NCBI GenBank assembly: GCA_018398765.1
Contig: JAHBMJ010000325.1
Span: forward strand, 1-20,554
Length of the DNA: 20,554 bases
Reading direction: 5' to 3'
From: Chromera velia
Taxonomy: Eukaryota > Sar > Chromeraceae
Below the pieces are notes generated by a model, which worked only from the letters and a program-made list of their open reading frames with translations, did not search any database and was not told where the DNA came from. Shown in pieces: positions 6,343 through 20,373 of the stretch; within the stretch, counting starts at the first letter, position 1, and every line of letters starts with the position of its first letter. Position numbers and translations under genes: made by a program.

Positions 6343-7584
6343 TCAGTCTGCGGGCTCCACCTGCAGACGCATGAAGTTGTCGAGAAACCAGGCCTTCCTG
6401 CAACATCATGCATGCACGAGGACAAGACAAGAGAAGAGAAGAAAGGGGGTAATGGAAAGGTCTCCGACGTCGGGGATGGACATCACTCACAAGTGAAAGA
6501 GAGAGAAAGAGAGAAAGAGAGAAAGAAATTGTTGGAAGGATTCATGCTGGATGGATGGACTCATCTGATTGAAGGAAACGGCTTGTAGACCGACTGACGT
6601 GACGTTTTTTCCCAGCTCTGCAAACCGGACAGTTCCCCCGAACATCCAGATGCCCCCCCGTGAGTCAATTCGGAGACCTGACTCCGCACGCGGTGGGCCA
6701 ACAGGGGTCTCTCGTTCCGGTTCTTTTTCTTTCGCTTTCTCTGCAGAGCTCTGTGACTTGCTCTCTTCCGACGAAGAGGAAGAGCAGCCTGTTGCCCTTT
6801 CTTTTTCTCTCCCTGTCTCTGTCTCTGTGCCTCCCGATGCTTCCGGTGTCTTCGCACCCACACGCGGTCGCACGTCTTCTGCCCCACTCCCGTTGTCTTC
6901 TTTGCTCTCAACGGCAGCCTCTTGAGAGGCAGAGACACAGAGGTCAAGAGATCGGGAGACGACCTTGCGAAGAAGAGTTTCGGGAGAGTTCCCGGTTGAG
7001 AGGGTGGGGGAGGCGGTCTGAGAAATCCCCTCCTTTTCGTTCCTCCGAGTGGAATTGAGGGAGGCTGAGCCTTCACGTGTATCAGCGGAGGGGATTTGAT
7101 TTTGTGGTCGTGTGGTTTGCTCTTGCTCTGCTGGAGTTGGCGGTTCTGAGGGGTTTGGGTGAGCAGGTTCCGGCGGGGGTGTCTGTGAAGGGGGACTGGG
7201 GGGGACGGATGCCGAGCCTTCTCTTTGGGGGGCGGTTTGTAATTGGCCCGATTCTCCGCCTTTTTTCGCTAAGGGAGGGGGGAGTCTACTTGCATGGGTT
7301 CGGAGATCCGTGGGGGGAAAGGAGGCAGAGAGAGTGAGGGCGGGGGGGAGGGACTCAGAGAGGGCAGTAGAGACCGTGGAGCCGGAGAGAGATCGGCCGG
7401 ACAACACAGCTCCTCCGTCTCCACTCTCCTCCTTCTCCTTCTTCTTGCTTGACGGTGTGTGAAAGGAAAGTTCAGTAGAGGAGGAAGACGAAGAGGAGAC
7501 GGGCCCTTTGCCTTCAAAAGGAAGGTCCCGAGAAACCGAAAATGAGGAAAGGGGAGAAGGTTGCCACGCGCTATCGAGCTCGAT
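6343..7584 (-). other. gene B exons 11-12: proline/serine-rich loop and kelch blade 6
   Basis: Exon 11 continues after VWTE with [10 protein letters not shown], then a loop of about 290 residues rich in P, S, E and T. It ends with [20 protein letters not shown] and [12 protein letters not shown]. Exon 12 (55 nt) adds [17 protein letters not shown] and TGA at 6343-6345. Donor GTCAGT at 6598 is phase 2 and matches exon 12. The closing strand immediately before the stop suggests the propeller ends with the protein. Confidence 0.78.
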
Positions 7585-10004
7585 CTGCAGTCACTCACTC
7601 ATTCACTTATTCGTCCATTCACTATTTGTCGAAAGGCAGACCTTGAACTTTTATTTACGTTTCTATAATGTCTCATCGTTCCATCATCAGATCGATGCTC
7701 AAAAAACAGGTGTTCATGTTCTGTGCGTGCTAAGTGATTCGACTTCAGTCAGCGGGTTTCACATGCATCAGAAGGCCCCTTTTCTTTTCCCGCGCGCGAT
7801 CAGACTCCACATCCGCATGCAGTCTCTCTTTTTTTTGGAATGTGAGGCGGGAGCAGGTGTGTAAAACTTTCATTTTGTGCATTGAGAGGGGAAAAAAGAG
7901 ACGAGGACAGAGAGAGAGAGGGAGGGAGAGGGAGAAAGGAGAAAAAAAATAAGGCAATGGAACGGCAGCAGCAAACCAGACTGAATCCAGTATCTCCCTC
8001 ACGACAAAACCAGAAGGAAAACCGAAGGAGCCCTCCACCTTGCGTCCCTCCAGACAAACCAAGCCTTGAGGTCTCTCTACTCTCTCTCCCTCTCTCTTTA
8101 CACACACACACACACACACATCAAATCAAGCCCATGCAGGCAGGGAGACAAGAAGGGGAGCGAAGAGAAGGGAAGGGAAGGATCGAATGTTTGACTCTCA
8201 CCTCACCTCCGTCCAGACGAAGCTCGATGTGTCCAAAGAAAAGAGGTCGCACAAGAAGGCGCCGTCTCTCCACCCCCCAAAAATGAGGAGGCGGGGACCG
8301 AGGGAGTCTGCAGAGTGGTGAACACGGGGACCTGGGAAGCGCCCTCTCTGGGCAATGCTCTTCCACTTCCACCCAGCGGTCACGTCCTTCCTTCGGCACT
8401 CCAGGCATTCTCCAGCTGTCTCCCTCTCCCTCTCTCCCTCAGAAGAAGAGGAAGACGACGGGGCCTTTCCTTTTCTTTTTTTGCGATGTGCTCTTCCTGT
8501 TTCTCTTTCGGATACTTCTTCTTTTTCTTTTTCGTGAAGGGACAGAGAAAGGGACAGAGAGGATGCGGACGAAGATCTGTGTTTGGAAAGGGGGCGGGAG
8601 TCTTCATGGACCTTCCTTTTCTTTCCCCCTGCTCCCTCTTTTCCGCTGGACCCCGTCGCTTCTTCTTTTTTCGCCTTTTCTATTTCCCTCACCCTCTTGT
8701 TTTCTCTTGATGCAGACATCGCCAGAGAAGAGAGAGACACTGCGTCGAGTCCTTCTTTTTTCTCTTGACCCCCAACCTGTTTTGTCCTCGAAGGGCTCCC
8801 TCCTTCCTCCTCTCTCTCAGACTCTCCAGAACAGAGTGCGCCTGTGTGGCGCTGCTGAAGGAAATCTCCTAACTGGCGTGCGTGAGTTGCCGGAGGGAGG
8901 AAAAGGGGGAGGTCGGGGGCCTGTCTGTAGGAATTTCGGGTCCATGCTCTCTCGAAGTTGGGCTGTGGCTGTGGTGGTTTCTTTTTGTGGTCGGGAATCT
9001 CTTCGGGGGATCCTCCTCCTTCTTTTTCATTTTCATTTTCCTCCGCATGGGTGCGTTTCGTTTTTGATTCTGTCTGCTGTGTCGTTTCCTTTCTCCTTTT
9101 GCTTCCCTTCTTCCTTACCGAAGAAAAAGACGAGACTACTTCCTCTCTGCAGAAAAGAGGAAGGTCAGGCATCTGCTTATACGAACTTCTGGTCCATGCT
9201 CTCTCAAGGGTCCGGCCTTGGAAGAGTCCAGATTTGTCTGGAATAGTCCGCTGTCCTGATGCGCTTTTTCTTTGGTTCTCTCTCTCTCTTCCCTCTCCTG
9301 ACGGAGATTTCTCACCACCGTGTCCCTCTCCTTCATCAGCCTTGGCTTGTGCCAACTCTCTCTGTGCTTGTTTGTGTTTGTCCTGCCCCCCCGTGCTTTT
9401 CCTTTGACGGCTCTTTGGGAGAATTACACGAAGCGGATGGCCTCCCACTCGCCTCCCTTTGGAATTGGAGGAATTGGCATCAGAGTCGGAAGAGGAAGTC
9501 TCGGGGCTGCTGCTGCTGCTACTGGAAGAGCACGCACAGGGGTCCGACGCTTTTCTGGGGATCGGCCTCCTGCATCTTGGGCGCCGCTCTCTCTCTCTGT
9601 CTCTGCCTGCGTGCGGCTCCCTTTTACCTTTCCCCGCTGAGACCTCTCTGGTGCTGCCTGTCGAGGAAGAGGAAGAGGGTCCACGGGGGAGGAGCGTGGG
9701 AGATGTGTTTCGAAACTCTCCCCCCACTCCGGGGGACAGAAGGGAACGCGCCTCCATCGAAACGTCCTCCTTCTCACTGCCCCCCCGACTCCAACATCCC
9801 GATTCCTCCCCCAAAGGCTGCTGGAAACGTTTCTGTTTGTCTCGACAGAGCATCCACAGGTCCTGCAGCCAGGCAGGTAGGCAGACAGGAAGGCGCAAAT
9901 GGAGACAGGAAGTAAAGACCATTCAAGGGAAACGACAGACTTCTCAAAAAAGCACTCGAGAGTCTTACAGAACCAAAAGTGCATACCGGGAGACAAAATG
10001 ACTG

Positions 10005-10057
<53 letters not shown>

Positions 10058-11605
10058 GGCATCGAGAGAGACACACAGACGCAAAGAGAATCGAACTGAG
10101 AGACCAGAACTCACACGATCGCACACTACCAGTCGGGGCCATGACCATAGAGAAAATGAGACAGACACCCTTTGTTCGCAACAAAGAAAGCAAAGAAACG
10201 AATCAACGAACCAACATTCTCCCTCCCTGACCGACCCCAAATGTGACCAGAGAGGCCGACGATGCCCCCCCATTCCCCCCCTGCTGGTTGCGTTGCACGG
10301 CTCCAGGTCCGTGTGTGCCGTCCCTCTGAATCACCACCCCCCCCGAGGGCCTTCCTCCTCTCGTTCGCTGCGTCTTCACAGCTTCCCCTGCGGACTCTCC
10401 GGGAGTCTTGGAAACAGCGCTCGTCACATGATCCACCTTCACTTGGCGATTCGCTCCTCTTCCCCCAGATCTCGAGAGGGAGGCCTCGGTTCCTTTTTTG
10501 GGAAGGGGAAGGGAGGCCGTTACTCCCTCTTCCTCTCCACCCCTGCACGCCCCACCCCTCTTCCTATTCCACTCCCCCCGTGGAGCAGGAGGCTGCACCG
10601 AGTCTCCCCTCCCTCCAAAGAGAAACAAGCGGCTTCCCACTGCTGTCAGAGAGTGACCGAATCGGCGAGCAGGCACGCGACCACTCACGGCATCAGACGG
10701 CGTTGAGGCGACCGGCGGTTCTTTCTCTTTCTCTTTGCACAGCCCCCGACTCGATTCTGCTGTTTCCCTCTGCTCACTCTTCATTCCCCAAATCCTCCCA
10801 TGCACCCCCTCACCGCCCTTCCCCGCAGTGCCCCCCTTGCCAAAACAAGAGAGACCCCGTCCCTCTGCATTCGCATCCTCATTCAATTTACCCACCCCCT
10901 TCCGCTCCCCCTTCTCTCCTTCCCTGCCGCCCCCCCTCCCAAGCTCCACATCCACATCCCCCTCGGGCTCGAGTCTGTGCCAAGAGAACCAGCCATCGGA
11001 AGGATCATCAGGGATCTCCAGGAGGTACACGTCCCCGAACAGCCGACGTGCACCCATTCCACCTGAGACCACCGCAGCTGGACGCGCCTCTCCGAGGACC
11101 TCCAGACTGGCCTGCAGGCAGACAGGCAGGCAGGCAGGCAGGCAGGGAGGTATTGTATGTACAGACACAGACAGGCGGACGGACGCATATACATGTTTGG
11201 CGAGCGTCTGTATCTGACTGCACGTAATACATGAGTCGTCTGCGATGGGTACGTTCAGGGTTTCCAGACAGGAAGGCACACATGCATGGAGGCAGGTCGG
11301 CATGTACGCATAGCCGCGCTGTGCGCATTCCCCCCACTTTTCTCCCTCTAGACATCACCCCGCACAAAAAGAGAAATGCCCGTCTTCGTTTTTCCAGTCT
11401 CCACCTCTCCCCCTCCCCCAGAAACCTCCTGCAGGTCTCTATACCTCCCTCCTGAAGCTCAGATGAATGAATGGAAGACCTCGTGTCTGCATGTCACCAT
11501 TGCTCCGATGCAGATACTCACCCTAGCTAGACTCAGAGAAAGAGAGAGAGAGACCAACTCTCGGATTCACAACGAACTGATGCAGGCAACAGAGAGACCC
11601 ACCCA

Positions 11606-11647
<42 letters not shown>

Positions 11648-14600
11648 CAGACTGACTGTGCAGGACGCATAGTGATTCCGCGCGGATGGTGGCCGTCCTC
11701 TTGTACACCAGTGCTCCCACCTGCAGGCAGGCAGGCAGGCAGGCAGGCAGGAGTCCAGGTGCAGGATCACCAGACGAACTCAGAAGACAAAAAGAAACAA
11801 AAGACCAGGCCTCTCCACACACACGGGGATGAAAACAAGAACGCATTCCTCTCCCCATCTCTTCCTGTCCCCATGGAGTCTCATTCGTTCTTTCAACTGA
11901 CACGATCGAAAAGATTGAACACCAACAGGCCGACAGGAAGTCTTCAAAGAACGTTTCGACACGGCCGCAAACACGACGATTTCTTCGGTACGTCTTGCCA
12001 CTTTGCGACGAAACCAAAATGGAAGAACGAGCCATCCAGCAGTAAAAATAAAAAAAGAACAGAAAAGAAAAGACGATGCGTCTACTGGAAGGAAGATGCT
12101 TCTCTCCCTCACCCGACCAAGCAGCCAGGCAGGCAGGCAGCCCACCCACCTCGGAGGCTCAAATTCCCTTTCCAGTCGGAAGGGCAGGGCCATCCCGGAC
12201 TTGCACTCCAGCACACTCACGCGTCCGAACTGTCTGCTGGCCGATGCAATCACCCTCCCGTGTCTTCCCCTCGGCAGATGGGAAAACACGACTAGTCTCT
12301 GACCCTTCTCAAAAGGAGAAGAAGCACAGAGAGGGACGGCAACGCAGTCCGATCCCCGGAACCTGCGCTCGCTCGCTCATGCGCAGAGAGGAAGGAAGGA
12401 AGGAGCGCAGGCAGGCAGTACATGAAGGAGACAGAGAGAGAAAAAGAGCGCCCACCCCAAACATTCATGATCTGCGAGCAATGAGGCAGAAAGAAGACAG
12501 GAGAACCAGATGGCTATCCAAACGATCTGTTTGACGCACGCTCGGAGGGACTTTAGGCCGGGAACAGAACATGAGGAGATGCGGAGACAACAGCGAGAGA
12601 CACCCACAAGCACATGACATGAAGAGGGAAACGACAAGTGGAAGAAAGAGAGCAAAACACCACGCCAAGCTGCACTCAAAGAGCGTCCGCGTCAAACTAA
12701 ACACAGAGACATGCTACATCACATGTGCCCCCAAAACACTGGAAGACTCTCCAGCGTCGGCGGGGTTTTGTGTACACGGATTCTTTGATGGTATACTAAT
12801 ATTCATGCACGTTTTTGCATTAACGGTGATCGCATGTTCAGATCCTTCTGCAAGCGCGCAAAGCAAATAGCAAACAATATCCCCCCCCCCCCATCTCTAA
12901 CCTGCACGCATCCGCCAAAGGATCATCCAGCATGTTCTCGCTCATCATCGCGTTCAGCGTCCACTCAAAGTCTCTCTCTCCCTCCTTCTCCTCTCCTGTC
13001 TCGCCCCCTTCTTTCGTCGAGACTGGGACGGGGGGGGGGGGTGAAGAGGAGAAGTCCCTTTTGGCCCCCAGACTTTTGTTCTCGAAGAACCCCCTCTTCA
13101 AGTCAAGTGACCACACCTCACAGCAGGGCATCGGCACTTCAGAGTCAAACAGCTCAAAAACCCCGTAGCCCCCCGACAGGAGGATTCGATCCGCCAAGCC
13201 GTGTCCGTCTCCGTCCCGTGAGTCTCTGCATTGGGCTTTTCTGTCTCTGTCTCCATCTGCGTCTGCCTGTCTGTTTTGGTCTCCATCAGAGAGGGAATGG
13301 GAATTCTCTTCTCCTTTTTCCTCCTGAGCGAAAAAAAAGGCAAAAGGAAGAGGAGGAGGGGGGGGAGACAGCCGTCATACCAGACAGAGGCTTTCTTTTC
13401 TTCTGCATGCTTGTACAAAATCTCCCACTTGTTCATTCAGGTTTTCACTCGAGAGCAACCAGAGAATCGAAAGCTCCAACTTGAAGAGAGAGAGAAAGAG
13501 AGAGGAGAAACGAAGAGGACGCACAAGAGCAACAAACAAACATCGATCAACTTCTCTTCCAAAACATACAGACAGACGGAAAGGACCAACTCCAAAACCT
13601 ACCCCACCTGACGGGCAGACAAACACAATCCTTCGCAACTCACCCCTGCAGTTTTGTTGTTGCACGACGAAAGAGAAAAGCGCCTCGCGGCAAGAGCCCC
13701 AAGCCCCGGGGCCCCAGCACTGCTGTCGAAGGAGAGGAGAACGTCTTTGCGAGGCTGCATGCATACAGACACGAGAGGAGGGAAGCTCGACTGGACATCA
13801 AAAACAACGAACGTCAGAATTTCTGGAAATGCACGCACACATGGCAACCGAGGGTAAGGGATTCAGTCAAGGAAGGGCAGACAAACCGGCCAAGATTGAC
13901 AGTAAATGTGCACAGACTCCCTCTGACAGTGACCGTGCATTTGCTGCTCGTTTCCCCTTGGCCGACTGACTGTTCTTGCTTGAGAGACTAATCGGTGAAA
14001 GCGCCAGACAGACCAGACAAACAGAGGCATAACAGAGGCCACACAGAGAGAAAGGCTTTCTGTTTTTTTCTTTTTTTTAGCATTCTTGTCTCTTCTCTCT
14101 CTCCTTCTCCCCGACTGACTGACTGACTGACCGACTGACTTTCTCGCTCTTTTCCCCACTCTCCTTTTCCCTTACAGACAGACAGTAATGTTTGTTTCCT
14201 CTCTCCCTGTTCTTTCGTGAACGGAGAAAAAGAGAAAGGCTTCCCCACCTTCACAAGAAAAATCAAACGGAGGCTTCATTCATTCATACCCAATATACAT
14301 CCAAAACATTCAACGCTGTCTGAATCGATCGAGACTGATGTTGACCCACTGCATCTGAACGCAGATCTGCAACGTCGATAGCAGCCACATTCCTCTCACA
14401 CAAAAGTTCCCCTTTCACACATTGCACAATCCGCCCATGCATGCCACCCACCTGCACAAGAGACTGCGGGAGGTCCTCAGGCTCCTTCCAGGGGCTCTCC
14501 CAAACATCCAGACGCTCCTTCGGGAGGGGGAACTGCCGCACCTCTGTTGTTCTTGTGTGTGTGTTTTTGTTGTTTTTTTGTTCGATGGTTCAGGATGCAC

Positions 14601-14803
14601 ACAAGAGAATTCACAGAGAAACATGACAAACGGAAACATACGCGCACATGCATGCCCATGCAATCACACACAAGGACCCGTCAGTCACGAGGGCATGCCC
14701 ACGCACACGCACACGCAACCACACAGAGAGAGAGAGAGAGACACAGAGAGAGAGAGAGACACACACACACACAGAGAGAGAGAGAGAGGGGGAGAGAGAG
14801 ACG

Positions 14804-14840
<37 letters not shown>

Positions 14841-16686
14841 GGAGAGAGAGAGAGAGGAAAACGCTTGTTCCAGCTTCCTGTCCAGAGCTTCCGCACTTCC
14901 TTCCTTCCGTCCATCCGTCCGTCCGTCCGCGAGCGCATACAGCCAAAATGGAGAAGAGAAGGTTAACGAAAGGCTTCCTTCCTTAATTCTTCCTCATCTG
15001 AGGCTGATCGATCACGATCTTTCCCGACCGACCTGAAAGACGGAGGGGGCCTGCCCAAACAGATAGCGACCCTTCCTTGCGTGCGAACTTCTGAATCAAG
15101 TTTCTGCATCATGACAGAAAGCACACATGTTAATACAGAAACAGCCAAACAAATGAAAGTGTATGAAAATTAGGTCGCACATCTTCTTTTTTTTTCTTCT
15201 CTCCTGGAGAGAGAAAGACAGGCAGAGACAGAATGTATACTTCTTTCTTTCTTTCTTTCTTTCTTTTCCCTCCTTCTTTTCGTGTACAGGCAGACAGATA
15301 GATATACTGATAGACAGACTTGCTGACAGACAGACGAACAAACGGACAGACACTTTTTCCTACTTCTGGTCGTTCTCTTTATTTCTTCTTTCTTTTTCCC
15401 AAACATGGAGACAGGCAGACACATCACATGACTTCTTTTTGGCAGACAGACAGACAGACTATATGTTTCTTCCTCTCCCTTCTGACAGACAGACAGACAG
15501 ACAGAGAGACAGAGAGACAGAGAGACAGACAGACAGAGAGACAGACAGACAGAGAGACAGACAGACAGAGAGACAGACAGGCAGACAGACAGAGAGACAG
15601 ACAGCGGACAGACAGACAGGCAGGCAGGCAGACAGAGAGACAGAGAGACAGACAGACAGCCAGCCTATACGTTTCTTTCAGACAAACAGACAGAGAGACA
15701 GACAAGCAGGCAGACAGACAGACTGTATCGTCTTTTCTTTCCCCTTTTCAGGCGGACGGACGGACGGACAGAGAGACAGACAGACTGGCGGGAACGCAAA
15801 CAGTTAGAAAACAGGAAGTCACCTCCCGAAAAAATGGAAAAGAACCATGGAACAGGCGGGCATGAACTTCAAAAGAAGAACAGCATGCAGACAGGTGCAA
15901 TGCTCTTTTTCCCTCTCCCTTCTAACCCTTCTTCTGCGCATTCGCTCAATTCCGTCCTGTCTGACTTTACAACCCCCCCTCTTTTTTGGGCCGGGCAAAA
16001 GAGAAAGAACGCTCTCTCTGTGCGAATGAGGGGAAGAGTCGGCAAGCGAAATGGTTGAGTGGAGTCGACGAGCCTCAGGGCTGACTTTGAGGAAGCAGAG
16101 CATGTCTGATACTGAGAAGCGTCTCTTTCTGCATGCACGCACAGGTCCAATGGTGGGAAGGACAGAAAGGGAAAGGGAGGGTGCAAAAAGAAAAAAGGAA
16201 CAGGAAAGTCTTCAGATTTGATGGATGAGGATTCCATTCCTTTCCCTTGTGAAACGAGGGGCTGTCCATCGTGGAGGAAGGAAGCGTAGCTAAAAAACAA
16301 ACGAATAAACAAATCCAGCTTCTGAACCAAAATGTGGCTTGACAAGCATCTGTGTGCAAGCGTCGCATTTCAAAATTCTGTTCAAAAGCTTTAGAGCCTT
16401 TTTTGCTGGTTTGATCAGCAGGGTGTGAGGATGCACCCCGACAAACCGACCGGCCGACCGAACCCCCCCCCACACCCCAATTCTCATATTCGCAGCGACA
16501 ATGACGATTTGAATGGAGATCAGAATGCCGGTGTTTTTCAAAGAAGAGCTCCATTCAGTCACCTGTGAAGAAAAGGAGCACCTCTTCGAGAAGGTTCAAC
16601 GACAAGAGGGCGGTCAGAGATGTTTTGCAGGAAGGAGACGGCGACGGGACACGCGCTGTCGAAGTTGGTGTCGTGGCTGCCTCCAT
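6343..16686 (-). CDS. gene B: F-box / six-bladed kelch-repeat protein, 12 exons
   Basis: Exons: 16686-16563, 16128-16086, 15103-15033, 14543-14452, 13754-13644, 13323-12902, 12362-12150, 11720-11657, 11111-10236, 9862-8207, 7584-6599 and 6397-6343. They sum to 4713 nt (1570 residues), and every junction keeps phase. The F-box is at residues 24-72, split over exons 1-3. Kelch strands with GG motifs are at 198-199, 397-398, 546-547, 1201-1202 and 1540-1541; a degenerate blade at about 289-380 makes six. F-box proteins bind SKP1 in SCF ubiquitin ligases, and the kelch propeller normally binds the substrate; that role is inferred. Very long low-complexity loops are inserted between kelch strands, including a KKRKV nuclear-localisation-like motif at 1086-1090. 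The start ATG has A at -3 and G at +4. Least certain are the exon 4 and exon 9 donors. Confidence 0.82.
6495..6528. repeat. (GAAA/GA)n microsatellite in gene B intron 11
   Basis: Plus-strand GAGAGAAAGAGAGAAAG units. On the sense strand this is the (CTTT/CT) pyrimidine tract of the shortest intron (201 nt, 6598-6398), whose acceptor is ATGTTGCAG. Confidence 0.9.
7585..8206 (-). other. gene B intron 10 with GA-rich and CA repeats
   Basis: The 622-nt intron runs from GTGAGG to GAGTGACTGCAG. It holds a (CT)n-(CA)n tract at about 8069-8120 and a GA-rich stretch near 7905-7950. No open frame continues the kelch fold through it. Confidence 0.7.
8207..9862 (-). other. gene B exon 10: 490-residue disordered loop and kelch blade 5
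   Basis: It opens with DLWML, the fourth strand of blade 4, and closes with [20 protein letters not shown] and [15 protein letters not shown], blade 5. Between lie about 490 residues of S, K, E, R and G-rich sequence without stops, containing serine runs, KKRKV, KKRKGK and a duplicated 19-residue motif (8900-8956 and 9152-9208). Retention of one open frame over 1656 nt, with kelch strands at both ends in the same frame, shows it is coding and not intron. Confidence 0.85.
8900..9208 (-). repeat. duplicated 19-residue peptide motif ERAWTRxSYxQxPDLPLF
   Basis: Copy 1 at 9208-9152 (residues 891-909) and copy 2 at 8956-8900 (residues 975-993) of gene B share E-R-A-W-T-R, S-Y, Q and P-D-L-P-L-F, with only conservative changes elsewhere (S/N, K/R, M/A). 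The flanking loop is low complexity and not similar between copies. This looks like a selected short linear motif, perhaps a docking site. No known motif name is assigned. Confidence 0.85.
10005..10052. repeat. (GCAC)n-(AC)n microsatellite in gene B intron 9
   Basis: GCAC units grade into AC units on the plus strand, so (TG)n on the sense strand. It lies mid-intron (10235-9863). Confidence 0.93.
11113..11147. repeat. (CAGG)n tract forming the exon 9 acceptor
   Basis: On the sense strand it reads CCTGCCTGCCTGCCTG..., ending CTGTCTGCCTGCAG directly at exon 9. The microsatellite takes the place of the polypyrimidine tract. Confidence 0.9.
11599..11650. repeat. compound (AC)n-(AG)n microsatellite next to the exon 8 donor
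   Basis: It begins a few bases inside intron 8. On the sense strand it is GTCAGTCTGTCTCTCT..., so the donor merges into the repeat. Confidence 0.9.
11721..11751. repeat. (CAGG)n tract forming the exon 8 acceptor
   Basis: Seven to eight CCTG units on the sense strand end in CTGCAG, immediately before exon 8. The donor end of the same intron (12149) also starts with GTGGGTGGGCTGCCTGCC, so both intron ends carry the repeat. Confidence 0.9.
12881..12892. repeat. poly-C (sense poly-G) run near the exon 6 donor
   Basis: Twelve consecutive C on the plus strand lie 9 nt inside intron 6. On the sense RNA this is G12, in a position where G-runs are known to affect splicing in other eukaryotes. Confidence 0.85.
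12902..13754 (-). other. kelch blade 1 (gene B exons 5-6)
   Basis: Exon 5 carries ARRFSLSS, the P-x-R-x-x-H-S-like strand. Exon 6 carries [13 protein letters not shown], then CCEVWSLDL, the GG and W-x-LDL strands. Thirty-three acidic/basic residues are inserted between them at the start of exon 6. The exon 6 acceptor at 13324 has the only strong polypyrimidine tract among gene B introns, and its phase-0 fit to exon 5 (GGG|GTGAGT) fixes both. Confidence 0.8.
14112..14141. repeat. (GACT)n array, sense GTCAGTCGGTCAGTCAGT, in intron 4
   Basis: Seven tetranucleotide units read on the sense strand as serial copies of the GTCAGTCGG donor seen at exon 11 and at the apyrase intron. It sits mid-intron between 14451 and 13755. 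Confidence 0.9.
14698..14857. repeat. large compound (CA)n-(GA)n microsatellite in intron 3
   Basis: About 160 bp of CACGCA, AG, AC and AG tracts with GGAGA and ACGG interruptions. On the sense strand it is (CT)n/(TG)n pyrimidine-rich. It lies within the intron 15032-14544. Confidence 0.93.
14897..14929. repeat. (TTCC)n-(CCGT)n microsatellite
   Basis: Short TTCC units pass into CATC/CCGT units in intron 3, near the exon 3 donor. Confidence 0.88.
15241..15265. repeat. (TTTC)n microsatellite in intron 2
   Basis: About six perfect TTTC units on the plus strand. On the sense strand this is purine-rich (GAAA), unlike most intron repeats here. Confidence 0.9.
15441..15790. repeat. CAGA/GAGA microsatellite array with 16-bp higher-order unit
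   Basis: Interrupted blocks of GACA and GAGA tetranucleotides fill most of intron 2. Positions 15503-15526 are three AGAGAGAC units. Positions 15519-15582 are four copies of a 16-bp unit made of AGAGAGAC plus AGACAGAC, the last copy ending AGACAGGC. The sense strand is (CTGT)n/(CTCT)n. The long open frame it gives on the plus strand (D, R, Q, T repeats) is an artefact. Confidence 0.93.
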
Positions 16687-17243
16687 CGTGCTTTGCCGAC
16701 ACGAAACCTCTTTTCTTTTGATGAAAGAAGACACTCCACGTCTTAGAAATCACATACAAGAGCAAAGAGACCAGACGATCCCCTCAGTAGTCTGTCAGAA
16801 CCCGCTAAAGAACTAAGGGGAGGGACTGAAAAAAGGAGACTGATCTTATCGTGCCCGCAGTTTTTTCTTTCCGTTCCTCTTCGTTACGAGACGCCTGACC
16901 TCCCCTCTGTACGACGATGCTGGACAATCCGCCAGAGAATTTCACCTCTAAAAGACGTGCATCTCCCTTAATTGGGAGAGAGACAGGCGTTTTGAATACG
17001 TCAATAAAGAAGTACAAAGGAACGCAGCCGATCGCAGCCGTGAAGTCTCAGCGACTCAGGTGCGTTCCTACAGAGCCTACAAAAATCTGAACCTCTCCTG
17101 ACTTCCCTGCAAATGACTGTTTTGCAGATTTGGCAGAAAAGTTTTCCACGGGATTCATCCTCATCGTGATTCAGCTCGTCTGATGTATGAATGATCATGA
17201 AGCCTCGATCAATGTCGGAGCTGGAGTCGATCTGACATGCAAG

Positions 17244-17287
17244 TATAGCCCAATATAGCCCAATGTAGCCCAAGATAGCTAGCCCAA
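17244..17287. repeat. 10-bp tandem array TATAGCCCAA (four copies)
   Basis: Units at 17244-17253 and 17254-17263 are identical, and 17264-17273 differs by one base (TGTAGCCCAA). The fourth, 17274-17287, has four extra bases (GATAGCTAGCCCAA). The 10-bp period, one helical turn, and its position between divergent genes suggest a protein-binding array. That role is inference. Confidence 0.85.
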
Positions 17288-17372
17288 GCAAGATGAATTT
17301 TTAAATTTTTAGCCGTCTCGGCGTCTCCGCGTGCCGGATGCGCGGTGGCCCGGAAAGCTTCCAATGATGGCA

Positions 17373-17380
17373 TGCATGCA
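17373..17380. promoter_or_regulatory. TGCATGCA octamer upstream of apyrase
   Basis: It lies 257-264 bp upstream of the apyrase ATG. It matches the ApiAP2 target word known from apicomplexans and the tract 300 bp upstream of gene A. Confidence 0.35.
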
Positions 17381-17401
17381 GCGCGGGCCCTTTCCATGCA
17401 C

Positions 17402-17456
17402 TGTCGCGGCAATTGTCGCGGCAATTCGCGGCATGCCGGGGATTGCCGGGGCATGC
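17402..17456. promoter_or_regulatory. GC-rich duplicated element with inverted GGCATGC arms
   Basis: TGTCGCGGCAAT is repeated in direct tandem (17402-17413, 17414-17425), followed by TCGCGGCATGCC. GCATGCC (17431-17437) and GGCATGC (17450-17456) form inverted arms 12 bp apart. It sits about 180-235 bp upstream of the apyrase start, so a proximal promoter element is plausible. Confidence 0.45.
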
Positions 17457-17636
17457 ACAGAACGATTGACACCATGATCGCCCTTTCTGGAGGAGGCAAC
17501 CGAATTCTGCAATATTCTATGGCTGCACTGTTTTCCCATCCTGACAGTTTCCTCACGGCTTCCCCACAGAGTGAAATGAAAGGTTGTGTGAGATCTCTTC
17601 AGATTCAATGCATATTCCTGTGATTGTGTTTGGAAC

Positions 17637-20373
17637 ATGAAGGCAAAGAGGTTTTGGATTCTTGTCTGTTCTCTCTGCAACACGGCACAAGGGTCAGCGG
17701 CCGCTGTGTTGCATAACCGCTACGCCGCTGTCATAGACGCTGGGAGCACAGGAACACGGCTCCATGTGTTTGCTTACCATTGGAACCCGGCCTTATGTGA
17801 AGGCCATGGTGCCGTGGAAGTTGCGGTACCAGACAAAAACAAGAAGGTCTACCCTGGCCTTTCGTCATTCACCCAAAAGGTTTCTGAGGTGCCAGACTAC
17901 CTCGACAGACTCCGTGTCTTTCTCGACGGAGAAGTGCCAAAAGGGATGAGGGCAAGCACCCCCCTGTTCTTTAGGGCGACTGCGGGGATTCGAAATCTTC
18001 CGCGGACGGTGGCGAAGAGAATTTTACAGAGTGTACAGGAGTCACTGCAGAGCTGGGGGTACTTGTTCGAGACCAGTTGGGCGAGGGTGATGGGGGGGAA
18101 AGAGGAGGGAGTGTTGGGGTGGCTTGTTTTGAATGAGCTTCTGGGAACGTTTCCGCATGAGAGTTTGTTGGTGGGGGGAGGGGGGTCCTCAGTGGATCCT
18201 GATTTAGAGGGGAAAAGACAAAGGGCCAGTTTGTTTGAGGTGGGGGGGGCATCGGCACAGGTGGTAGTAGAGTTGTCCTCACTGAGTGCCCCTGCTCAGG
18301 TAAGGTCGGACTCAGCTCTCGAAAAGGAGGGGAGCGGACAGTCACCTGCAAACGGGCGAGGGGAAGACAATTTCGGGGAGAGAACTTCAAGAACACCCCC
18401 AGTATCTGCCAACCGACTTTTGCGGTTCTGTGGGAGGGAATACCATCTTCATGCGTTCAGCTTCCTTGGACTGGGTCGTCAGTTGTCGCTAGAAAACTTG
18501 ATTCTCCGAGAAGCCGCTGCTGTCCTTGATCCTTTTTCGCCTCCCCAAAAGAGGAGACGGAGGGAGCAGGACAGACAGAAGGACAGAGAGACGGAGAAAG
18601 AAGGACTGTCGGCGGTTCCTGTCGCATGTCTACAGAGGGGGGCGTCAATGGTTGTAGGGCACTCTGAAGTTTCAGATGCGCCGTCACGCGCTCCTCCAGT
18701 CCCCGCCTCTGTAGAGCCTCCAGGCTTTCTGACTGCCGTTCCTCTTCCTGTAGAGAAAGAAAAAGGAGCATCCGCTTCTTCTCCTTCAACTCCGTGCGAA
18801 CGTTCTGCTCTGTGGTGTAACTTTCCGGGAACAGAGGAGGAGCGTATCCTAGTGGAGGGTGACGGAGACGGGGAGGGATTGGAGGACGGAGACGCCGAGA
18901 CGGAATCCTTCGACTCGACTCAGGGAGGGGAGGGGATGAGGGTGTGGGGGCCCGGGTCTGGGGTCTCTCCAAGGGGACAATCCGGTTTGAGGGCAAACGA
19001 GAGCGCGAGCAATGCAATGAGCACGACCTCTAAGTCTCTAGTGGTGGTGCGAACTGTTGAAGCATTCGGCACTGGCAAGCTTGACTCGTGCCTAAATTCC
19101 GTTGCCTCCAACGTCCTCGACTATTTGCCTCCTCTGCCTCCAGAGGTCAGTCGGTCGATCGATCGATCAGCTGTGACTGCTGTGTACCGGAATGTGCAAG
19201 CAAGCTTGACTGACTGACCGACTGGACAGCTCGCTCTTGTATCATGGTTGATTGGTAGGGACTGTTCTGCTCCTCCCTCCCTGCATACGGTGAGCCGGTC
19301 AAGAGTGGCAGGGACAGTTTACGCCAAGCACAGTGGACACTTGACTCAGCAATCATGTCGAAAAGCAGCGAAACAGACAGAGGAGTCCCTGAAAGAATGG
19401 ATGTTTCACTCTGCAGCCCCCTTCCATGCCATACAATGGCAGGCAGGTAGCTGTGCGTCCGCGATGTTTGCAGACAGGCACGGGAAATTCGCCTCCGCTT
19501 TCTAGCTCTTAGAAGAGGGGATTCGATCCCATTTCTTTTCTAGCTGCGCGTTTCGGCAGGCGGCCTGCTGCATGGTTCAGGAGAAAGAACCAACTAGAAC
19601 CAATGAACCCGGAATTTCCTGCTATTTCATTTGTGAATGGTAAGGGGGGAAGAAAGAAAATCAATTTAAGAAGCTGCCCCCCTCTCCCCCTCCCTGCCTC
19701 CCTCTCTCCGCGTCTGTCTGTCTGCTGTCTGCAGGTAAGGAGAAGACTTGCAGAGGCCCCGCTTTACTGCACTGAAAATTGTCACTGGGAGAACGTGAAA
19801 ACGCGGGGGGGCGAAGCGGGTGGTGTCCTGTCGAGTGCCGACCTGCGGGAGGCTGCCAGGGCAGTATGTGGCCTCCATGTGAATGCGGTAAAGGCCAAGC
19901 TTGGAAGTGCCGCAGAGGAAGAGAGAAGTCGCACTGCGTGCTTCGGACTCTCTCTGTTTGCCGAGACCTTTACAGGTCTCCTCGGACTTCCCCCTGACTT
20001 TCAGGCAACAGCCGCGAATTCTGTGGGGGAGGCGGATCTCGGTTGGGCTGCGGGTGTTCTCCTCCTGTCTGTCCCTGAGCTGTTTCGCTCTGGTGTGTTG
20101 TCGTTGAACGAGACAGACTTTGAGGCAGTGACAGAGAAACAGAGCATACCTCTACTTCCAGCCACGGAGAAAATCTCGGAGGCTGCGCCCGCGTCTTTTG
20201 GGGCCTTTGCCAACTCTTCTTCTTCTTCTTCTGCTTCTCATATTTATTCGAGCCCCCCACGATGGGAAGATCTCGAGGGGGTTGGAGAGAGGGGGGACGA
20301 GAAAGAGAAAGAGGGGGACCTTGACAGAGAACGTCAGCAGGCCGTCCCATTGCCTCTGGCTGTTATTTCATGA
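17637..20373 (+). CDS. gene C: secreted GDA1/CD39-family apyrase (nucleoside di/triphosphatase), 2 exons
   Basis: Exons are 17637-19145 and 19735-20373, both phase 0, giving 715 residues. Apyrases hydrolyse nucleoside tri/diphosphates with Ca/Mg in the ER, Golgi or outside the cell. A signal peptide (WILVCSLC core) is followed by apyrase conserved regions: ACR1 DAGSTGTR (34-41, phosphate binding), ACR2 RATAGIRNLP (113-122), ACR3 GGKEEGVLGWLVLN (153-166, with the catalytic-type Glu 157), ACR4 FEVGGASAQ (200-208), the HAFSFLGLG block (272-280), FGTG (477-480), and ACR5-like ADLGWAAG (603-610). All key residues are present. Insertions make it longer than usual (about 450-550 residues), chiefly at 281-475. 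No C-terminal membrane helix is seen, so a soluble lumenal or secreted enzyme is likely. The start ATG has A at -3. Substrate preference cannot be told from sequence. Confidence 0.93.
19146..19734 (+). other. apyrase intron (GTCAGT...TGTCTGCAG)
   Basis: The 589-nt intron begins GTCAGTCGGTCG after GAG (residue 503) and ends CTGTCTGCTGTCTGCAG. Removal joins YLPPLPPE to VRRRLAEAP in phase 0 and restores ACR5. If retained, translation stops at TGA 19215-19217 after 23 extra residues. Its acceptor tract is a C-rich/CTGT run at about 19676-19734. Confidence 0.85.

What the first reader, a model, noticed from the sequence alone, without database searches (positions are those of the whole stretch)
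6593..19151. Six of 14 introns start with GTC instead of GTR
Donors placed by phase and domain continuity read GTCAGC (16085), GTCGGT (15032), GTCAGT (11656), GTCGGT (10235) and GTCAGT (6598) in gene B, and GTCAGT (19146) in the apyrase gene. Position +3 is normally A or G in eukaryotes because of U1 snRNA and U6 pairing. Pyrimidine at +3 in over 40% of introns, often extended to GTCAGTCGGTC, suggests a lineage-specific donor code or a changed U1/U6 partner.
Basis: partly seen in the sequence, partly recalled or inferred. Interest (0 to 1): 0.78.

Follow-up and report, generated by a model that had tools for sequence, protein, structure and literature searches.

The report
Introns that start with GTC
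In this alga-like eukaryote genome about half of the introns that could be checked begin GTC instead of the usual GTA or GTG, although the small RNAs that read intron starts look unchanged, which makes it a natural test of how cells recognise introns.

Summary
The unusual donors are real and not confined to the window. In six conserved genes (TypA, five CCT subunits) I placed introns by spliced alignment to known proteins, with scoring blind to intron base +3. Of 41 introns 24 pass a flank test: +3 is C in 14, G in 9, A in 1, T in 0; +5 is G in 23. Banning GTC/GTT donors costs at least 12 score units at 12 of the 14 GTC sites, 4-5 at two. In the window, donors 19146 and 10235 are fairly supported, three are plausible, and 11656 has a phase conflict. 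U1 (5' AAACUUACCUG) and U6 (ACAGAG in 7 of 7 copies) look canonical; no compensating U1 copy was found. So a 'lineage-specific donor code' is supported, a 'changed U1/U6' is not. Likeliest mechanism: C+3 pairs with the unchanged U6 G44, a weak contact for A or G (PMC11732430). A merely relaxed +3 is a close rival: against nearby decoy GT sites the C excess is not significant (p=0.07). No RNA evidence was available. Chromera velia is an inference.

The parts
17637..19145 (+). apyrase (GDA1/CD39 family) exon 1
   Evidence: PF01150, 134.1 bits; gene finder
19146..19734 (+). apyrase intron, donor ccagag|GTCAGTCGGTC, acceptor TGTCTGCAG; phase 0
   Evidence: two-exon gene of the same span
19735..20373 (+). 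apyrase exon 2 (homology weak)
   Evidence: open frame in phase; joined protein 143.4 bits, exon 2 alone no Pfam match; PDB alignment not significant
9863..10235 (-). gene B (kelch-like) intron with donor tttggg|GTCGGTCAGGG, 10.0 bits; in-frame alternative donor 10211 GTTCGT, 0.9 bits
11651..11656 (-). claimed GTCAGT donor of gene B; phase 1 in the kelch-like frame, conflicts with the acceptor before 11111
15027..15032 (-). claimed GTCGGT donor, tttcag|GTCGGTCGGGA, 12.4 bits; plausible, no homology
16080..16085 (-). claimed GTCAGC donor, 9.0 bits; unconfirmed
6593..6598 (-). claimed GTCAGT donor after a stretch that looks kelch-like by eye ([12 protein letters not shown]), 8.0 bits, phase 2; plausible
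7585..8206 (-). gene B intron with a GTG donor, acggag|GTGAGGTGAGA (gene finder)
8207..9862 (-). gene B kelch exon (gene finder)
   Evidence: near its 3' end PF01344 24.8 bits (cut-off 20.1) and PF24681 39.8 bits (below its cut-off 50)

Best explanation
These are ordinary GT-AG introns of the major spliceosome in a lineage whose donor consensus has become AG|GTSAGT, with S = C or G. Shown here: C+3 in about half of homology-placed introns, G at +5, T at +6, TGCAG acceptors, and canonical U1 and U6 genes. Inferred: the donor is chosen mainly when it is handed to U6. C+3 breaks one U1 pair (opposite U1 position 6) but makes a Watson-Crick pair with the unchanged U6 G44, at which A or G pair only weakly in other species. 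U at +3 has the same U1 cost and no U6 gain, which fits the shortage of T at +3.
For: 24 of 41 aligned introns pass the flank test: +3 C14 G9 A1 T0, +5 G23, +6 T19; C is 9 of 17 to 18 of 30 at other cut-offs. Penalty without GTC/GTT donors at the 14 GTC sites: 4, 5 and twelve values of 12-24. Gene-finder runs started with a flat donor model gave C 0.42 (128 introns) and, with other settings on the same sequence, 0.32 (135); the +3-blind run gave C 21, G 26, T 8, A 1 of 56 outside TypA. In the fetched sequence GTCAGT has the highest observed/expected ratio of the GTNAGT words: 216/76.1, against 182/103.8 (G), 40/20.2 (T), 64/40.6 (A). U1/U6 canonical. Forced-register energies for +3 A/C/G/U: -11.6/-7.5/-11.7/-7.7 kcal/mol with U1, 3.1/0.6/2.5/3.0 with U6. 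PMC11732430 passage: +3, usually A or G, interacts only weakly with U6 G44. SNRNP27 and a PF05971 gene, the family of METTL16 and of bacterial enzymes, are present.
Against: No transcript data. Against decoy GT sites within 60 nt of the same junctions the C excess is not significant (14/24 vs 73/196, p=0.07; vs 38/81 decoys with G at +5, p=0.36), so much of the C could be local composition. T is 0 of 24 but 8 of 56 in the gene-finder set. The expected trade-off with the exon end is not seen (AG| with C 5/14, with G 5/9, p=0.42; pooled p=0.81). The link of C+3 with A+4 in the 24 (p=0.013) is absent in the 56 (p=0.76; pooled p=0.053). Unforced duplex prediction with U6 did not favour C (A -1.4, G -0.6, C -0.1, U 0.2 kcal/mol, other registers), and in forced register the U6 gain is smaller than the U1 loss.
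Confidence: 0.47

Rival explanations
1. Relaxed +3: the lineage no longer reads position +3, and C and G prevail there only because GTC and GTG are the common GT words of this genome (GTA is rare).
For: GTN in the aligned loci: G938 C738 T522 A232; local decoys G76 C73 T33 A14; C excess over local decoys p=0.07; T 8 of 56 in the gene-finder set.
Against: T at +3 is 0 of 24 (p=0.030 against local decoys; p=0.003 against loci); C exceeds the locus background (p=0.004); of the four AGGTNAGT words only AGGTCAGT is commoner than its backward control.
Confidence: 0.36
2. A protein change: a spliceosomal protein near the donor (Prp8, U1-C, LUC7 or SNRNP27K) now favours or tolerates C+3.
For: The RNA partners look unchanged, so a protein is an obvious alternative.
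Against: The one such domain read, SNRNP27, keeps a YRQYMNRKGGFNR stretch; that its M is human M141 is from recall. Prp8, U1-C and LUC7 were not searched.
Confidence: 0.11
3. A compensating U1 or U1-like RNA exists but is missing from the assembly or too divergent to be found.
For: The assembly is in 4040 contigs; 41 of 2442 first-look U1 candidates were scored.
Against: The pattern search with free bases at the two key positions found only ACTTACC (2) and ATATACC (1); it requires a U1-like body behind them.
Confidence: 0.04
4. Misplaced junctions: the exons really end at nearby GTR sites.
For: Two of 14 GTC sites have a GTG alternative only 4-5 score units worse; one claimed window donor, 11656, has a phase conflict.
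Against: The other 12 sites lose 12-24 units, and G at +5 appears in 23 of 24 although the aligner does not use it.
Confidence: 0.02

Closest known systems
Major (U2-type) GT-AG spliceosomal introns with the AG|GTRAGT consensus
   Same: GT...AG ends, G at +5, T at +6, G at -1, canonical U1 5' end and U6 ACAGAG
   Different: +3 is C in about half and A almost never; A or G is usual elsewhere (PMC11732430 passage)
[quoted passage not shown] passages seen)
   Same: GTCAGT would be an extreme U6-led donor
   Different: the passages seen speak of A or G at +3, not C, and the expected trade-off with the exon end is not seen here
GC/GA donors of dinoflagellates and non-canonical introns of Amoebophrya (PMC7789003, passages seen)
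   Same: a donor change in another alveolate lineage, if the genome is Chromera
   Different: here 24 of 24 confident donors keep GT and the change is at +3 (the aligner charged GC 4 units and other ends 14 units more)

Membership tests
U2-type GT-AG introns | GT at donor, AG at acceptor | tested here: met
   24 of 24 confident introns, with GC and other ends allowed at extra cost
U2-type GT-AG introns | G at +5 | tested here: met
   23 of 24
U2-type GT-AG introns | purine at +3 | tested here: not met
   10 of 24 purine, 14 of 24 C
U2-type GT-AG introns | canonical U1 5' end and U6 ACAGAG | tested here: met
U2-type GT-AG introns | removed by the spliceosome as lariats in RNA | not testable with these tools
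   no RNA data held
U12-type introns | RTATCCTT donor (recalled) | tested here: not met
   0 of 24 confident donors in the listing
U12-type introns | U6atac RNA in the genome | tested here: inconclusive
   no match, but the control rang nowhere
GC/GA-donor introns of dinoflagellates | GC or GA at the donor | tested here: not met
   0 of 24
U6-led donor class | weaker exon end where the U6 side is strong | tested here: inconclusive
   p=0.42 in 23 C or G donors; p=0.81 in 70 pooled

The most novel reading that the evidence does not exclude
A lineage in which donor choice has moved from U1 to U6 without any change in either RNA: C+3 is favoured because it makes a Watson-Crick pair with U6 G44. 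The order of use in 80 introns (C 35, G 35, T 8, A 2) resembles the forced-register U6 energies and not the U1 energies. The perfect U1 target AGGTAAGT is also rare genome-wide (2797, against 14379 for the word read backwards), though in the fetched loci it is at its second-order expectation (3 against 2.6), so this may be composition.
Probability: 0.36. Interest if true: 0.85.

Novelty: new variant of a known kind. Interest (0 to 1): 0.68.

Why it matters
Base +3 is a position at which U1 and U6 want different letters. A genome that uses C at +3 in about half of its introns with ordinary U1 and U6 would separate the two readings in living cells and test whether commitment to a donor occurs at transfer to U6. 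It also matters for annotation: gene finders trained on GTR donors would miss or misplace many introns in such a genome.

Tried and rejected
Rejected: a changed U6 (ACAGAG in 7 of 7 copies; the next base is A in six and T in one, L017) and, as far as the searches reach, a compensating U1. Rejected: the run GTCAGTCGGTC as a special signal (8 of 19 against 249 of 663). Not seen: a trade-off between C+3 and the exon end. The first gene-finder run chained the sequence into 13 'genes'; a length cost for introns gave 48 genes but still microsatellite donors such as GTGTGT, so I moved to homology. GroEL as reference for C1681 gave poor introns, because the gene is CCT eta. CCT epsilon gave no PDB match at the cut-off. 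CCT theta added one GTC donor (GTCAGG) that is not in the counts, and a second, unanchored intron. Forced-structure energies were invalid and were redone. Script one search failed on a file name. Primers that could prove the organism are only in supplements, which were not available.

Papers: the lists (20 shown of 9,120; 10 of 10; 15 of 2,398; 8 of 26; 11 of 11; 12 of 31; 9 of 9; 12 of 2,392) show no title or abstract start that reports frequent C at +3; the lists are capped and the library is open-access only. PMC4501334, PMC11732430, PMC12621601, PMC7789003, PMC6920818 and PMC10739334 were seen as passages found by terms; in PMC10581693 none of my terms occurred.

Dropped rows: 17 of 41 aligned introns failed the flank test; in these +3 is C 9, G 4, T 3, A 1 (my count from the listing). 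One of the nine G introns in the 24 (TypA, GTGCTG) ties exactly with a GTCAGT donor 8 nt downstream. Seven of 63 gene-finder introns were dropped as lying in TypA.

Full report
What was checked. The window is contig C324 of a genome of 177.8 Mb in 4040 contigs. Its size and abundance of low-complexity DNA fit Chromera velia (193.6 Mb in 5953 scaffolds, many low-complexity repeats; PMC4501334, passages seen), but nothing here proves the species.

Is the donor call right? The aligner I wrote scores protein similarity only, accepts any GT at one price (GC 4 units dearer, other ends 14) and never looks at +3. Six genes on six contigs were used: TypA on C1105 with E. coli BipA as reference, and CCT eta, zeta, gamma, delta and alpha with PDB sequences as references; DNA. 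It placed 41 introns. I kept the 24 whose flanking residues on both sides score at least 15 against the reference. In these +3 is C 14, G 9, A 1, T 0; +4 is A 14, G 8, C 2; +5 is G 23; +6 is T 19; -1 is G 19. By gene, C of all: eta 0 of 2, zeta 2 of 4, gamma 1 of 2, delta 4 of 4, alpha 3 of 4, TypA 4 of 8. The 95% interval for C is 37-78%. Cut-offs of 25, 20, 10 and 5 give C in 9 of 17, 13 of 22, 17 of 29 and 18 of 30. G at +5, which the aligner does not use, argues that the junctions are right. Forbidding GTC and GTT donors within 90 nt costs 4, 5, 12, 13, 13, 14, 17, 17, 18, 18, 19, 20, 24 and 24 units at the 14 sites.

Further looks. A gene finder started with a flat donor model on about 230 kb of readable sequence of the same genome converged on C at +3 in 42% (128 introns) and, with other settings on the same sequence, in 32% (135 introns); these sets contain microsatellite artefacts. 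With the other donor columns taken from the 24 introns and +3, +4 and +7 left flat, 63 introns of C222, C1105 and the window had C 27, G 27, T 8, A 1; without TypA, 56 had G 26, C 21, T 8, A 1. Whole-genome counts of AGGTNAGT, both strands, are C 9969, G 7173, A 2797, T 1726, against 7169, 8722, 14379 and 5454 for the words read backwards. In the fetched sequence, against a second-order expectation, AGGTCAGT is 17 to 4.8, AGGTGAGT 12 to 6.6, AGGTAAGT 3 to 2.6 and AGGTTAGT 2 to 1.3. These are word counts, not introns.

The window itself. The apyrase intron 19146-19734 rests on agreeing phases, strong ends (12.9 and 13.6 bits) and the gene-finder runs. Homology of its second exon is weak: the joined protein scores 143.4 bits against 134.1 for the exon-1 frame, but exon 2 alone matches no family and its alignment to ENTPD4 is not significant. 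Gene B is a kelch-like gene with long low-complexity inserts. Donor 10235 is preferred to 10211 on profile score and was chosen by one of two gene-finder runs. Donors 15032, 16085 and 6598 are plausible. Donor 11656 conflicts in phase. So two of the six are fairly supported, three are open and one is doubtful.

Partners. The full-length U1 (L009, 79.3 bits) starts AAACUUACCUG and a partial copy below the cut-off (L010, 48.2 bits) has the same 5' end; a third partial copy (L011) lacks it. Seven U6 loci all read ACAGAG. A pattern with the two key U1 bases left free and two mismatches allowed found only ACTTACC twice and ATATACC once. SNRNP27 (one match) and a PF05971 gene (two exon-sized matches; the family holds METTL16 and bacterial enzymes) are present. 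U6atac was not found, but that search had no working control.

Mechanism. PMC11732430 (passages) states that +3, usually A or G, interacts only weakly with U6 G44. C would pair with G. In forced register with ViennaRNA, U1 pairing is -11.6, -7.5, -11.7 and -7.7 kcal/mol and U6 pairing 3.1, 0.6, 2.5 and 3.0 for A, C, G and U. So C and U are about equally bad for U1, and only C is better for U6. The observed order, C and G first, then T, with A last, resembles the U6 order. This step is inference.

Against it. Among 196 other GT sites within 60 nt of the same junctions C is already 37% (p=0.07 for the excess at donors; p=0.36 against decoys with G at +5), while T is 17% against 0 of 24 (p=0.03); in the gene-finder set T is 8 of 56. 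A at +3 is rare, but GTA is rare everywhere (232 of 2430). The C+3/A+4 association (11 of 14 against 2 of 9, p=0.013) is not repeated in the gene-finder set (p=0.76), and no trade-off with the exon end appears. Unforced U6 duplex prediction puts A first and C third. A relaxed +3 therefore remains a close rival.

Novelty. The capped lists of my searches of open papers show no genome with frequent C at +3. GC/GA donors are known in dinoflagellates (PMC7789003, passage) but are a different change. I call this a new variant of a known kind.

Noticed in passing
whole genome (word counts): AGGTAAGT, the perfect U1 target, is about five times rarer than the same word read backwards (2797 against 14379); in the fetched loci it is at its second-order expectation (3 against 2.6), so composition may explain it.
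   Followed up: partly
24 confident introns of TypA and CCT genes (L039-L046, L049-L051 and C1105): Acceptors are nearly uniform TGCAG: C at -3 in 23 of 24, G at -4 in 18, T at -5 in 17.
   Followed up: partly
L010, L011 and C3598:44904-44927: Further U1-like sequences that look like partial or altered copies.
   Followed up: no
about 15440-15780: Repeat tract of the GACAGACA type; 132 matches in the genome, most of them to this part (a lower bound since 40 of 1474 candidates were scored).
   Followed up: no
L005: Apparent OsmC-pirin fusion gene (by eye from the prediction, no family search done).
   Followed up: no
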